Shown here one piece after another: positions 2,632-33,317 of a DNA stretch of 64,000 bases; positions within the stretch are counted from its first letter, which is position 1, and the number at the start of each line of letters is the position of its first letter. A model generated the notes under the pieces. The model was not told the DNA's origin and ran no database searches. It saw only the letters and a list, made by a program, of their open reading frames with translations. The translations under genes were made by a program, and so were the position numbers. This DNA is from Solirubrobacteraceae bacterium. Its GTDB lineage: Bacteria > Actinomycetota > Thermoleophilia > Solirubrobacterales > Solirubrobacteraceae. Location of the stretch: the NCBI GenBank assembly GCA_030447785.1, contig JAUJOF010000008.1:98582-162581 (forward strand). Direction: 5' to 3'.

Positions 2632-3425
2632 TGGGCTGGCTGGCCGCCCCCCGGGAGTGGCTGGAGAGCTTCGGCGTCATCGCCAAGTTCTGCGGGCGCG
2701 TCGTCGGGCAGGTCTACTCGCTGCGCGTCCTCAAGTTCTTCGGTGAGGCCCTGCGCCAGGCCGGCGTGCTCATCGTCTCCTCGGCCATCGTCATCTGGGG
2801 CCTGGTGTTCATCATCGGCCTGCAGTGCGGGATCGAGGGCGCCTACTTCAACCGCTCGGTGGGCGCGCCGGCCTACGCCGGGGTGTTCTCGGCGTGGTGC
2901 GACCTGCGCGAGCTGATCCCCTACGCGTTCGGCTACATGATGGCCGCCAAGGTGGGAACGGGGTTCGTGGCCGAGCTTGGCTCCATGCGGATCTCCGACG
3001 AGATCGACGCGCTCGAGGTCATGGGCATCGACTCCATGCTGTTCCTGTGCGCCACTCGCCTGCTGGCCGCGTGGATGGTCCTGCCCTTCCTGTACATCGT
3101 CGCCGTCGGCGCCGGGTTCTTCGCCTCCTACCTGGCGGTGGTCCAGCAGATAGGCGAGGTCTCATCCGGGGGATACTTCCTCATCTTCTGGATGTTCCAG
3201 AATCCGCCCGACCTGCTCTACAGCCTCATCAAGGGCATGGCCATGGCCACGGTCATCGTGCTGGTGGGCTGCTACTACGGCTACAACGCCGGCGGCGGAC
3301 CCGTGGGCGTGGGCACGGCGACGGCCAAGTCGATGGTGGTGAACATCGTGCTCGTGCATCTCATCGGCATGCTCGGCACGGCAGTCTTCTGGGGGGCCAA
3401 CCCCCGAGCCCCGATCGGAGGTTGA
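2631..3425 (+). CDS. MlaE/YrbE-family ABC transporter permease (second copy)
   Basis: 264 residues, paralogous to the upstream permease. It keeps the family phrase MMAAKVGTGFVAELGSMRIS followed by DEIDALEVMGIDS, equivalent to the coupling helix, and has five to six hydrophobic stretches including VLIVSSAIVIWGLVFIIGLQ. The ATG at 2631 overlaps the preceding stop. Together with 1822-2631 it should form the heterodimeric membrane part of a lipid/sterol-type importer or exporter. The ATPase gene follows after two bases. The substrate cannot be read from the sequence. Confidence 0.88.
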   Translation: MGWLAAPREWLESFGVIAKFCGRVVGQVYSLRVLKFFGEALRQAGVLIVSSAIVIWGLVFIIGLQCGIEGAYFNRSVGAPAYAGVFSAWCDLRELIPYAFGYMMAAKVGTGFVAELGSMRISDEIDALEVMGIDSMLFLCATRLLAAWMVLPFLYIVAVGAGFFASYLAVVQQIGEVSSGGYFLIFWMFQNPPDLLYSLIKGMAMATVIVLVGCYYGYNAGGGPVGVGTATAKSMVVNIVLVHLIGMLGTAVFWGANPRAPIGG

Positions 3426-9152: not shown

Positions 9153-9815
9153 GTGCTCGATAGCCTCGAGGCCGCTGTACCCTCTGCGCGGCACGAGCGG
9201 CAGCTGATGGTCGTCCTCGACGAGACCCACCAAACCACCCTCCGTTGGCCCTCCGGTGCAGATAGGCCTGTCGCTGCGGTCGCTCCCGACCAGCGCGCCG
9301 CACGGCGCTCGTTGCGCGACCAGATCGCCCGCCTCGAGCATGACCTGGGCGCCTGCGTGGTCGCCGCCTTCCCCGGCCAGGCCCTCGACGTGTCCGTCAC
9401 GCGCACCGGCGGTCCGCGGGTGCTGGGCCTAGGCGAGCTCGAAACCCTGCGCGACGATCTCTCGCTACGCCTGCGCGACGCGCGCGCGACCCTGGCCCGC
9501 CGCGGCGAGCTCCAGCAGCGCAACCGGGTCCTGCTGGAGAAGATGCGTCTGGATCCGCGCCGGTACAAGTTCGTGCGCCTCGAGCGCGAGGATCTCGGGG
9601 TGCCCGGCTGCGGCGCCTGGGAGGTCCGTCCCCGCCTGGGCCTCATCGGCATGCTGATGGGGTGGTGGCAGGTCAAGCTCTCATCGGGCTGTCCCTTACG
9701 GGTGCCTCGGGCGGCCGACGTGGCCGACCGAGGCGGGCCCCGAGAGGATCTCCCGGTGCCTCGGGCGGCGGACGGGGCCGACCGAGGCGGGCCCCGAGAG
9801 ACGCTCGTCAACTGA
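9153..9815 (+). CDS. Hypothetical protein whose C-terminus is built from a DNA repeat
   Basis: 220 residues from GTG 9153; the ATG at 9228 is an alternative. The core has a helical segment (about 95-130, LRDDLSLRLRDARATLARRG) and a conserved-looking end RYKFVRLEREDLGVPGCG...GLIGMLMGWWQVKLSSGC. I do not recognise a named family. The last 36 residues (two copies of VPRAAD..ADRGGPRE) are encoded by the tandem repeat at 9701-9800, so the natural stop was probably lost and the reading frame now runs through repeat DNA. It lies 8 bp behind the B3/4 gene and 9 bp before the next. Confidence 0.65.
   Translation: MLDSLEAAVPSARHERQLMVVLDETHQTTLRWPSGADRPVAAVAPDQRAARRSLRDQIARLEHDLGACVVAAFPGQALDVSVTRTGGPRVLGLGELETLRDDLSLRLRDARATLARRGELQQRNRVLLEKMRLDPRRYKFVRLEREDLGVPGCGAWEVRPRLGLIGMLMGWWQVKLSSGCPLRVPRAADVADRGGPREDLPVPRAADGADRGGPRETLVN
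9701..9800. repeat. Two-unit GC-rich tandem repeat (54-bp period)
   Basis: Unit 1 spans 9701-9754 and unit 2 9755-9800. Each begins GGTGCCTCGGGCGGC and ends GAGGCGGGCCCCGAGAG. The order of blocks (GGTGCC, GGCGGCC, GTGGCCG, AGGCGGGyCCC) is the same as in the arrays at 28917 and 33182, suggesting one dispersed repeat family. It lies inside the 3' end of a coding sequence. Confidence 0.8.
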
Positions 9816-28108: not shown

Positions 28109-28831
28109 TCAGCGGTCGCGCGCGGGGGGTACCTCGCCCGGGCGCAGCGGCTCCGGCTCCTCGGGGGCGTCGTCGAAGGACAGCTGGCCGTCGGTGCGCG
28201 TGCCGTGGGAGGGGACCACCTCGGTGCGCGCGGTGGGCGGCTCCGAGTCGTTCCCGGCCGGGCCTCCGGAACGCCGGCGGGTGGCGGGCGGCTCGCGCTC
28301 GCCCGCGGTCGCCGCGCGCATGCGTACCCCCGCGGCGGTCAGCACCAGCGCGGCCAGGAAGGCCAGGAAGATGCCCCAGTTGACTCCGACCGTGGCCGCG
28401 GCCTGCGCGCCGGCGGTGGGCTCGGGCTGGTCGAGCTGGCGGTAGAAGATCAGCAGGCAGACCCACACGCCCGCGGCCGCCAGGAGCGTGCCGTCGCGCG
28501 CGGGCAGGTGGAAGTCGCGCCGCTCGGCGCGCGCGAAGAGCAGCGCCACTACCGCGGCAACCACGAGCAGGGTCGCCGCTTCGACGAAGGTGAACACCTG
28601 GAAGGCGCTCAGGCTCTGGCCCCCGCTGACCGGCCGCCCGCCGGGTACCGCCAACGTGGTCAGCTGATACCAGGGCAGGAACATCGTGGCCAGGAGCGCC
28701 AGTGCCGCCAGCGCGGCCACCCGCTGATCGGCTCCCGACCTCTGCCACGCGCGGCCCACCCGACGCGCGCCGCCCCCGGCGGCGGTCGCCACCCTGGTGA
28801 TCGCCGAGCGTCCCTGGTCGGAGCGTGCCAT
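28109..28831 (-). CDS. Membrane protein, paralog of 309-950
   Basis: 240 residues: a basic N-terminus, four hydrophobic segments (about 38-55, 82-100, 115-130 and 147-167) and a long charged disordered tail. LLATMFLPWYQLTTL after the first helix corresponds to LFLDWYSPG in the protein at 309-950, and FVEAATLLVVAAVVALLFARAERR to its second helix. The function is unknown. It lies between the protease gene and the repeat array and is read on the same strand. Confidence 0.68.
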   Translation of the reverse strand: MARSDQGRSAITRVATAAGGGARRVGRAWQRSGADQRVAALAALALLATMFLPWYQLTTLAVPGGRPVSGGQSLSAFQVFTFVEAATLLVVAAVVALLFARAERRDFHLPARDGTLLAAAGVWVCLLIFYRQLDQPEPTAGAQAAATVGVNWGIFLAFLAALVLTAAGVRMRAATAGEREPPATRRRSGGPAGNDSEPPTARTEVVPSHGTRTDGQLSFDDAPEEPEPLRPGEVPPARDR

Positions 28832-28916
28832 GGCCTACCAGCCCGGCTGGGCGGCCACGCCGGCCGTCGCCTGCAGGCGCTCGGTGAGGACCCAGGTGAC
28901 CATGGGCGCGATCATA

Positions 28917-29095
28917 GGGGTGCCGGAGGCGGCCATGTGGCCGCCGCAGGCGGGTCCCCAGGTCGCGATAGCGACACATGCTCCTAGGGGTGCCGGAGGC
29001 GGCCATGTGGCCGCCGCAGGCGGGTCCCCAGGTCGCGATAGCGACACGTGCTCCTAGGGTGCCGGAGGCGGCCATGTGGCCGCGGCACGCGGGTC
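28917..29095. repeat. Tandem repeat array, 70-bp units with two hairpins each
   Basis: Unit 1 is 28917-28986, unit 2 28987-29056 (one difference, A to G, position 28978 versus 29048), and a partial unit 3 starts at 29057. Each complete unit contains GGCGGCCATGTGGCCGCC (perfect arms, two-base centre; 28928-28945 in unit 1) and GTCGC-GATA-GCGAC (28962-28975). The array lies between two minus-strand genes and shares its block order with the repeats at 9701 and 33182. Confidence 0.92.
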
Positions 29096-30596
29096 AGCGC
29101 CTCACGCGAATTGGCCCGCGCCCGGTCGTGCGGTTGCCGGCCGGGTCCGTGGCGGTCAGCGTGACCGTGTACGTGCCGGCGCGGCGGGGCTCGTCCCAGA
29201 TCAGCCGGGCGCGCCCGGCGCGCACGTCGCGCGTCACCCGCTCGACCACCTCGCCACCGCGGGCGACGGTCATGGTGACCGTGGCGGGCTTGTCGATCGT
29301 GAAGATCACCGCCTTGGCGCGCCCGGCGGTGGCCGAGCGCGAGCGCAGGTCGGCCACCGGGGCGCGGCGCAGATCATCGGTGAAGCGCTGGGCCAGCGAG
29401 CAGTAGGGCGCCGGGTCGGCGGGCAGGCGGCCCTCGCCGAGGCGCTCGCACAGCCCGCGTAGGAAGTCGCGCAGCAGCTGGTGGTAGTGCAGCGTGCTGT
29501 CGCGCTCGTTGGAGTAGCGCGACCACCCGCCGGTGTCCATGCGCTGCAGCTCGCGGCGCAGCTGCGCCTCGCCGCGCAGGAACAGCGCCCGCGCCGAATC
29601 GTCGTTGGCCAACTTGGCGAAGTCGTACAACCCGTTGAGCGCCTGCACGAAGCCGTTGTAGATGCGCAGGTCGCCGGCCCACGAGTACTGCAGGTAGTGC
29701 GCCCGCGCGGTGGTCCCCGACCAGACGCCCTCGGGCGCGCGGCGAGTGAAGATGCCAAGCGCGCTGCGCGCTGTGCCCAGGTAGTGACCGCGGCCGAGGC
29801 GGATCCCCGCGCGCGACAGCGCCTGCAGCGCCGTGCCCTGGCTCAGGCCGCTCACCCAGGGGGCGCGCCCGTCGCCGAAGGCGAACAGGCTCTCCCAGGC
29901 GATGCCCCCGGCCCGGCGGGTGGCCAGCGGGATCGCCTCCTCCAGCAAGGCGCCGAGCTCCTCGTCGTGCTCGCGGGTGGAGAACAACGCGTTGGCGCGG
30001 CCGAACGTACCCAGCCACTGGATCTGAAGCCCCTGGCCGGAGTAATGCTCCCAGATGAGCTGGCTGCCGGCGAAGCGCACCCGCTCGCCGGCGCGCAGCA
30101 GGCGGCCCTCGCTCCACCATTCGCGGTTGCGTCGCAGGGTGAGGAACGTCGCGGGTGCGCGTGTGGCGGTCAGCCGATCGCGCGCGGCCAGCTCCTCCAC
30201 GGTGGCGATCACCGCGTCGAGCGCGAGGCGCCGGGCACCCCGCAGATCGCGCCGCGTGTCCAGCGCCTGGTGGTACTGGAAGCGCCAGGCGTCGTGCTGG
30301 GCCGGGGTGATCGCGCCCGTGGCGAGCAGGCCACGCAGCGCGCCGCGCACCGTGCCCCGCGCGGCCGCGCGCCCGGCCGTGCGGTCACGCCTCGGGGCGG
30401 GGGCGACCGGCTGCGCAGCGGCGGGCGGCAGGAACGGGTCGTCGACCACCTCGACCCCGCCGTCACCGAGGACGAGGAGAGCTCGCGAGGGGCCGCCTCC
30501 GCCACCGCGATGCTCAGCCCGCGCGGCGGCCGGCGCGAGGGCGAGCGCGAGCGCAAGCGCGGCGAGCGGAGCGGCGAGAACCAGCGTGGCGCGCAC
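29094..30596 (-). CDS. Secreted D-glucuronyl C5-epimerase-family protein
   Basis: 500 residues. A signal peptide (ATLVLAAPLAALALALALAP) follows GTG 30596. The region about 170-400 follows the C-terminal domain of D-glucuronyl C5-epimerases: LIWEHYSGQGLQIQWLGTFG, GGIAWESLFAFGD, PWVSGLSQGTALQALSRA, IYNGFVQALNGLYDFAKL and DTGGWSRYSNERDSTLHYHQL. A final fibronectin-like beta domain (ATVTMTVARGG, AGTYTVTLTATDPAGN) ends the protein. Family members epimerise GlcA to IdoA in polysaccharides; here an exported polysaccharide would be the substrate, by inference. It is divergent from the lipoprotein gene at 30672. Confidence 0.75.
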   Translation of the reverse strand: MRATLVLAAPLAALALALALAPAAARAEHRGGGGGPSRALLVLGDGGVEVVDDPFLPPAAAQPVAPAPRRDRTAGRAAARGTVRGALRGLLATGAITPAQHDAWRFQYHQALDTRRDLRGARRLALDAVIATVEELAARDRLTATRAPATFLTLRRNREWWSEGRLLRAGERVRFAGSQLIWEHYSGQGLQIQWLGTFGRANALFSTREHDEELGALLEEAIPLATRRAGGIAWESLFAFGDGRAPWVSGLSQGTALQALSRAGIRLGRGHYLGTARSALGIFTRRAPEGVWSGTTARAHYLQYSWAGDLRIYNGFVQALNGLYDFAKLANDDSARALFLRGEAQLRRELQRMDTGGWSRYSNERDSTLHYHQLLRDFLRGLCERLGEGRLPADPAPYCSLAQRFTDDLRRAPVADLRSRSATAGRAKAVIFTIDKPATVTMTVARGGEVVERVTRDVRAGRARLIWDEPRRAGTYTVTLTATDPAGNRTTGRGPIRVRR

Positions 30597-30671
30597 CGGC
30601 GCGACGCTACCGTGGCCGTCAACCGCGCCGGAGCATCCGCGGGTCCCGCCCCAGCCTTTCACCTCCTCCAT

Positions 30672-33181: not shown

Positions 33182-33317
33182 GTGCCGGGGCCATGTGGTC
33201 CCGGAGGCGGGCCCCGTGCGATCTCACGTGCGGGAGGGGCCGTGTGGCCCCGGAGGCGGCCCCGTGCGATCTCACGTGCCGGAGGGCCATGTGGCCCGGA
33301 GTGCGTGTCCCGGAGGC
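33182..33317. repeat. Three-unit GC-rich repeat array (46-48 bp units)
   Basis: Units begin near 33182, 33228 and 33276. Units 1 and 2 share GGAGGCGG(G)CCCCGTGCG and the ending ATCTCAC; all three contain an inverted core of the type GGGCCATGTGGCCC (33285-33298 in unit 3). The array lies between the start of the gene 32739-33161 and the acyl-CoA dehydrogenase, in a divergent intergenic region. It is related in block order to the arrays at 9701 and 28917. Confidence 0.88.

What the first reader, a model, noticed from the sequence alone, without database searches (positions are those of the whole stretch)
28917..29095. 70-bp tandem array with two nested hairpins
Two units are identical except for one base and a third is partial. 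Each contains GGCGGCCATGTGGCCGCC and GTCGC-GATA-GCGAC. Near-perfect identity means recent amplification or gene conversion. The array separates two minus-strand genes and could form strong RNA structures.
Basis: seen in the sequence. Interest (0 to 1): 0.6.

Follow-up and report, generated by a model that had tools for sequence, protein, structure and literature searches.

The report
Dispersed hairpin repeat at gene stops
The 70-base tandem array is a local multiplication of a small hairpin-forming repeat that is scattered some fifty-odd times through this actinobacterial genome, usually sitting exactly on the stop codon of a gene, so it looks like a lineage-specific miniature mobile element of a broadly known kind with no identified enzyme to move it.

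Summary
The array is real: two 70-bp units (one difference) plus a truncated third at 28915-29095. It is not unique. It is a tandemised copy of a dispersed 73-bp element, TAG-[hairpin A]-AG-[hairpin B]-NNNNCTCC-TAG, with about 55 well-scoring copies in this 3.3-Mb Solirubrobacterales-type MAG (86 matches at E<=0.01), including 89-bp and ~120-bp classes with another hairpin nested in the loop of hairpin A. Hairpin A belongs to a structure-conserved superfamily (9 of 16 pairs with compensatory changes) found in 8 of 146 genomes of the taxonomic family. In 29 of 56 copies the element's terminal TAG is exactly the stop codon of a flanking gene on one or both strands; orthologous sites in a same-genus genome are usually empty. 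Best reading: a REP/MIRU-like non-autonomous mobile repeat that inserts at TAG stop codons and leaves TAG at both ends, so genes on either strand keep a stop; here it then duplicated locally. No RAYT (Y1_Tnp) occurs in this genome or in the better relatives that carry it, and the GTAG tag is not met, so it is not filed as a GTAG-REP. How it moves is not shown. New, lineage-restricted variant of a known kind.

The parts
28915..28984 (+). Unit 1 of the dispersed element (TAG + hairpin A + hairpin B + CTCC); the next TAG at 28985-28987 is shared with unit 2
   Evidence: CM hit 94.5 bits
28985..29054 (+). Unit 2, full copy, one base different from unit 1; followed by TAG 29055-29057
   Evidence: 100.5 bits
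29055..29095 (+). Unit 3, truncated: hairpin A partly degraded, no hairpin B; ends at the TGA stop (29094-29096) of the minus-strand gene
28917..28959 (+). Hairpin A of unit 1 (GGGGTGCC-GGA-GGCGGCC-ATGT-GGCCGCC-GCA-GGCGGGTCCCC); repeated at +70
28962..28975 (+). Hairpin B of unit 1 (GTCGC-GATA-GCGAC); repeated at +70
28109..28831 (-). Neighbouring membrane-protein-like gene; no Pfam or NCBIfam match; its start lies about 80 bases beyond the array
29094..30620 (-). Neighbouring gene whose 3' end abuts the truncated unit; C5-epim_C (D-glucuronyl C5-epimerase C-terminus) domain; start approximate
33187..33301 (+). Second tandem array (48-bp period) of the same hairpin superfamily (GGTGCCGGGGCCATGTGG...GGAGGCGGGCCCC + GTGCGATCTCACG), between divergent genes
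9697..9756 (+). Diverged copy of hairpin A (G000 C18:108278-108337, 37 bits)

Best explanation
The array is a locally duplicated copy of a small, non-autonomous mobile repeat (REP/MIRU-like). The full element is 73 bp: TAG, a structure-conserved stem-loop (A), a second stem-loop (B), CTCC, TAG. Shown: it is dispersed; its ends coincide with stop codons far more than chance; most orthologous sites examined in a sister species lack it; tandem units share one TAG. Inferred: it inserts at a TAG (usually CTAG) and ends up with TAG on both sides, probably as a 3-base target duplication; the terminal C of CTCC then rebuilds CTA, so a gene on the minus strand also keeps its TAG stop. Insertion in either orientation at a stop codon therefore does little harm, and insertions elsewhere are purged. 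Later slippage or unequal exchange between neighbouring copies or TAGs made the 70-bp array. The mobilising enzyme is unknown; the palindromes are probably its recognition structure. A secondary role in 3'-end mRNA stability or termination is possible but not shown.
For: Copies: 44 blastn matches and 86 CM matches in the own genome. Sharp boundaries with unrelated flanks. Stop-codon coincidence: of 56 copies at >=44 bits, 19 have an upstream gene ending exactly at the left TAG and 13 a convergent gene ending exactly at the right CTA, while every other offset has at most 2; 29 have at least one. A separate codon-score test gave 31 of 51. Background: in the window only 16 of 357 TAGs are predicted stops; in 0.85 Mb of sister genome G001, 72 of 285 CTAGs are at stops. 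Target fit: where the right end is used as a stop and the left TAG is intact, the base before TAG is C or T in 11 of 12, as needed if a CTA/TTA stop was there before (modest, roughly P 0.03 by my estimate). Empty orthologous sites in G001, several with the stop at the same codon. Tandem joint is CTCC-TAG-GGGTGCC, period 73-3. Hairpin A: 97.7% of cells paired, 9 of 16 pairs with double changes, 0/500 shuffles, slid controls 40-55%.
Against: No transposition was observed and no clean pre-insertion sequence was recovered on both sides. The G001 orthologous stop is TGA, not TAG, in 4-5 of about 11 readable left-stop sites, so either stops have interconverted or the element brings its own TAG. A few non-canonical copies hint at other, longer flanking repeats (C8:167422 GACC, C39:142804 TACTG). 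No RAYT was found. The two inspected DDE insertion sequence families have different ends. At two orthologous positions G001 carries a related element in the opposite orientation, which a purely random mobile element would not predict. The genome is an 88% complete MAG, and gene calls are from a simple codon-score finder.
Confidence: 0.68

Rival explanations
1. The repeats are functional, selected 3'-end signals (bidirectional transcription terminators or mRNA 3'-end stabilisers), kept at gene ends by selection rather than by target choice.
For: At least one flanking gene has its 3' end facing the element in 51 of 56 copies; 19 lie between convergent genes and only 4 between divergent ones. Structure is conserved with covariation. 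Two orthologous sites carry related elements in both species in opposite orientation, and at the window locus G001 carries a different tandem hairpin repeat.
Against: No T-run and no terminator-like site at the array. A terminator need not supply the stop codon itself, yet copies cluster at the exact base. Most genes lack it and most orthologous sites examined in G001 are empty. More than half of the copies have a neighbour's 5' end on one side.
Confidence: 0.17
2. It is a GTAG-REP/REPIN family moved by a RAYT (Y1 tyrosine transposase) that was lost or lies in the unassembled 12% of the genome.
For: Palindrome with a TAG-type tag at both ends in inverted orientation, like a REP doublet; REP termini are reported to provide TAG stop codons (PMC3733652); REP families without a dedicated transposase are reported (the CGTC type, same paper).
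Against: No PF01797 in the own genome or in G001 (95% complete), G075 (98%), G028 (95%) or G137 (92%), all of which carry superfamily copies; the control search works. The base before TAG is C, G, T or A and follows the flank, so the tag is not GTAG.
Confidence: 0.1
3. A MITE cross-mobilised by a DDE insertion sequence of the genome that also targets CTAG (the IS982-family copies seen here).
For: The IS982-family element is bounded by CTAG at both ends in 3 of the 5 copies seen (a fourth has CTGG at one end, the fifth is cut off on the left), and one copy supplies a TAG stop codon.
Against: Its inverted repeat (ATGATCGATTCC) bears no likeness to the element's ends, the element has almost no terminal inverted repeat, and the model finds no element-like ends on the insertion sequences of the two families searched.
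Confidence: 0.05

Closest known systems
GTAG-tagged REPs / BIMEs / REPINs (RAYT-associated)
   Same: Short palindromic, mostly extragenic, dispersed, tandem or clustered arrays; TAG at the terminus often serving as the stop codon of a flanking gene (PMC3733652); inverted-doublet-like layout with a TAG tag at each end.
   Different: Tag is NTAG not GTAG; two unlike hairpins in a 73-bp unit; no Y1 transposase in carrier genomes of good quality; the 2013 survey (PMC3733652) lists GTAG repeats in Proteobacteria, Cyanobacteria, Chloroflexi and PVC, with no mention of Actinobacteria.
MIRUs (mycobacterial interspersed repetitive units)
   Same: Actinobacterial, about 50-77 bp, apparently mobile, inserted at codons of gene boundaries so as to spare the genes, tandem copies at a locus (PMC12548453, PMC4213456).
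   Different: MIRUs are reported to insert at start codons with an internal ORF coupled to the downstream gene; this element sits on TAG stop codons, puts a stop at each end, often lies between convergent genes, and is strongly palindromic.
CGTC-tagged REPs
   Same: Palindromic repeat families reported to lack a dedicated transposase (PMC3733652).
   Different: No CGTC tag at the ends; other taxa.
MITEs of IS5-type elements with CTAG-like targets
   Same: Short, non-coding, flanked by the same few bases on each side.
   Different: No usable terminal inverted repeat and no matching autonomous element found.

Membership tests
GTAG REP | Palindromic stem-loop repeated many times, mostly outside genes | tested here: met
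GTAG REP | Conserved GTAG tag at one end | tested here: not met
   Base before TAG is variable (mostly C) and depends on the flank
GTAG REP | RAYT (Y1 transposase, PF01797) in the genome | tested here: not met
   Absent from the own genome (88% complete MAG) and from the better carriers; present in 22 of 146 family genomes, of which only G065 also carries a copy of the element
GTAG REP | Terminus supplies TAG stop codons to flanking genes | tested here: met
   29 of 56 copies
MIRU | Insertion at start/stop overlap with an internal ORF coupled to the downstream gene | tested here: not met
   The element starts with an in-frame TAG stop for the upstream gene and many copies lie between convergent genes
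MIRU | Tandem copies varying in number between strains | not testable with these tools
   Tandem copies seen at three loci of the genome; no second strain held
MITE | Terminal inverted repeats matching an autonomous element | tested here: not met
   Ends GGGG/GGAG only; rve and DDE_Tnp_1 insertion sequences have other ends; other transposase families not searched
MITE | Target-site duplication | tested here: inconclusive
   TAG on both sides fits a 3-bp duplication; orthologous sites in G001 show TAG in about 6 of 11 and TGA in 4-5
Intrinsic terminator | G+C-rich hairpin followed by a T run | tested here: not met
Rfam RNA family | Match over the gathering score | tested here: not met
   (best chance matches far below cut-off)

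The most novel reading that the evidence does not exclude
A family of palindromic mini-elements in Solirubrobacterales that an unidentified, non-RAYT recombinase inserts specifically into TAG/CTAG stop codons, with ends shaped so that genes on both strands keep their stop; convergent genes overlapping at CTAG would be split apart without loss of either stop.
Probability: 0.3. Interest if true: 0.62.

Novelty: new variant of a known kind. Interest (0 to 1): 0.42.

Why it matters
It adds what appears to be an undescribed dispersed-repeat family in a lineage (Thermoleophilia, known largely from MAGs) where my limited literature searches found none described, and a clean example of a selfish repeat made nearly harmless by landing on stop codons. 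Because good carrier genomes lack the usual RAYT, it makes the open question of how transposase-less REP-like families spread testable. The tandem arrays are candidate strain-typing markers, as MIRUs are.

Tried and rejected
Rfam (none). Sigma-70 promoter / intrinsic terminator scan (none). Plasmid collection (none). RAYT search in own genome and 146 family genomes (no association). Composite-transposon idea: closely spaced inverted copies (C8:148945/150280, C34:118036/120540, C39:259669/260872) enclose ordinary-looking genes, not a recognisable transposase (judged by eye). IS-derived MITE: two transposase families searched, multi-copy insertion sequences used to find IS ends, no likeness. CRISPR was not considered likely: palindromic units, shared 3-base joint, no spacers. 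Literature searches for an earlier description in Solirubrobacter/Thermoleophilia gave nothing relevant; the original MIRU paper was not found in the library, so MIRU facts come from later papers.

Full report
OBSERVATION. The array is present as described: TRF places it at 28915-29095 with period 70, 2.6 copies and score 334. Units 28915-28984 and 28985-29054 differ at one base and the third is truncated. The two hairpins lie side by side rather than nested. Folding is better than in shuffled sequence (DNA z -3.85, RNA z -2.10 for one unit; RNA z -4.47 for the array).

IT IS A DISPERSED ELEMENT. blastn of the array against the window's own genome (G000, a 3.32-Mb, 41-contig, 88%-complete MAG) gives 44 matches. 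Reading them with flanks shows one sharp unit with unrelated surroundings: TAGGGGTGCCGGAGGCGGCCANNTGGCCGCCGGAGGYGGGYCCCCAGGTCGCGATAGCGACACATGCTCCTAG. A covariance model built from 23 copies finds 86 matches at E<=0.01, about 55 at 44 bits or more (E-values rough). Three size classes occur: about 73 bp; 89 bp, with a GGCGTAGCGAAGCGAGCCGTGG hairpin in the loop of A; and about 120 bp, in which a second hairpin of the same superfamily (GCGGGTGCCGGAGCGGCC...GGAGGCGGGTCCCGC) sits inside the loop of A. Tandem copies occur at three loci: the window array, C34:158790-158971 and C32:169243-169405.

SUPERFAMILY AND STRUCTURE. In 146 genomes of the same taxonomic family, 8 have matches to the model, with genome-specific versions (examples read). 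On 24 diverse cores, hairpin A keeps 97.7% of pairs, with double changes at 9 of 16 pairs; shuffles never reach this and slid structures pair 40-55%. The set was hand-chosen and the structure was derived from members of it, so the slid control leans in its favour, but the compensatory flips (for example GTGCC/GGCGG to GTGGC/GCCGG) are visible by eye.

WHERE IT SITS. I predicted genes with a simple codon-score finder. Among 56 copies at 44 bits or more, the 3' end of the upstream gene falls exactly at the left TAG in 19 and the 3' end of a convergent gene exactly at the right CTA in 13; no other offset has more than 2. A second test that asks only whether the frame ending at that TAG is open and coding-like gives 31 of 51. 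In the window, TAG is a predicted stop in 16 of 357 occurrences; CTAG occurs 20 times against about 156 expected from base composition. In 0.85 Mb of the same-genus genome G001, 285 CTAGs divide into 72 at stops, 164 intergenic and 49 inside genes. CTAG is thus rare inside genes and common at stops, so a CTAG/TAG target would by itself bias insertions to stops, and purging of gene-breaking insertions would sharpen this (inference). By arrangement, 19 copies lie between convergent genes, 32 have one 3' end facing them, 4 lie between divergent genes and 1 is in a predicted gene.

PRE-INSERTION SITES. Orthologous regions of G001 are about 70-89% identical. Most sites examined have no element there. 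At left-stop sites the G001 stop is TAG in about six (C36:2602, C34:158790, C39:306508, C8:16235, C32:133796, probably C20:28867) and TGA in four or five (C32:183884, C17:84482, C22:101527, C27:73278, C8:106340 unclear). G001 uses TAG in 225 of 749 predicted genes, so TAG is mildly but not significantly enriched. Where the right end serves as a stop and the left TAG is intact, the base before TAG is C or T in 11 of 12, as expected if a minus-strand CTA or TTA stop was present before insertion and TAG was duplicated. I regard a 3-bp TAG duplication as likely, not shown. Two copies with other ends show GACC and TACTG on both sides, which I cannot explain.

SHARED POSITIONS. At C39:142804 and C32:174515 G001 has a related element at the same place in the opposite orientation. 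At the window locus G001 instead has two units of a different hairpin-like repeat (CTTTCGCCTTCGGTCCTCTCAAGTTCGG...) after the orthologous gene. This may be recurrent insertion at a favoured site, inversion, or selection for some hairpin at these gene ends.

WHAT MOVES IT. No Y1_Tnp (RAYT) domain occurs in G000, and of the carriers of superfamily copies only G065, with a single copy, has one. DDE insertion sequences exist: a PF01609/IS982-family element mostly bounded by CTAG, one copy of which supplies a stop codon, and an rve-type one; neither has ends like the element. The enzyme remains unknown.

THE ARRAY ITSELF. Units 1 and 2 share a base not seen in the other aligned full copies, and the joints are CTCC-TAG-GGGTGCC (one G lost at the second joint), giving a period of 70 = 73 - 3. 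This fits local duplication across shared TAGs. The array lies about 80 bases before the start of a membrane-protein-like gene (28109-28831) and directly after a gene with a C5-epimerase C-terminal domain. Any effect on the expression of these genes is untested.

COMPARISON. GTAG-REP termini are already reported to 'often provide' TAG stop codons to flanking ORFs (PMC3733652), so the stop-codon placement has a precedent; but the GTAG tag and the RAYT, both tested, are not met. MIRUs are the closest actinobacterial analogue in behaviour (PMC12548453; PMC4213456), with start-codon rather than stop-codon placement. I therefore call it a new, lineage-restricted variant of a known kind: REP/MIRU-like non-autonomous repeats.

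Noticed in passing
window 33187-33301: A second tandem array (48-bp period, 2.4 copies) of the same hairpin superfamily with another tail, lying between divergently transcribed genes.
   Followed up: partly
L259 (G001 C70) about 1395-1480 and 2950-3060; also L185, L210, L215: The sister genome has its own 36-45-bp tandem repeat (CTTTCGCCTTCGGTCCTCTCAAGTTCGG...) absent from the G000 loci held; it occupies the orthologous place of the window array.
   Followed up: partly
L271 1096-2092, L272, L273, L274, L275: IS982-family insertion sequence, mostly bounded by CTAG on both sides; in L272 its left CTAG supplies the TAG stop codon of the upstream gene.
   Followed up: partly
L049 around 2500 (G000 C39:250760): An element lies where an ATPase-like gene is cut short and its neighbour is inverted relative to G001: recombination between copies or a misassembly.
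   Followed up: no
L133 (G000 C26:1-1257) and L053 (C39:259669-260938): The MAG holds the same stretch twice, on contigs C26 and C39, suggesting strain mixture or a redundant contig.
   Followed up: no
L012 1501-1529 (G003): A genome of another genus has GGGCCCCAGGTCGCGATAGCGACACA, nearly identical to the hairpin B end of the element, without a full copy.
   Followed up: no
window, whole: CTAG occurs 20 times against about 156 expected from base composition.
   Followed up: partly
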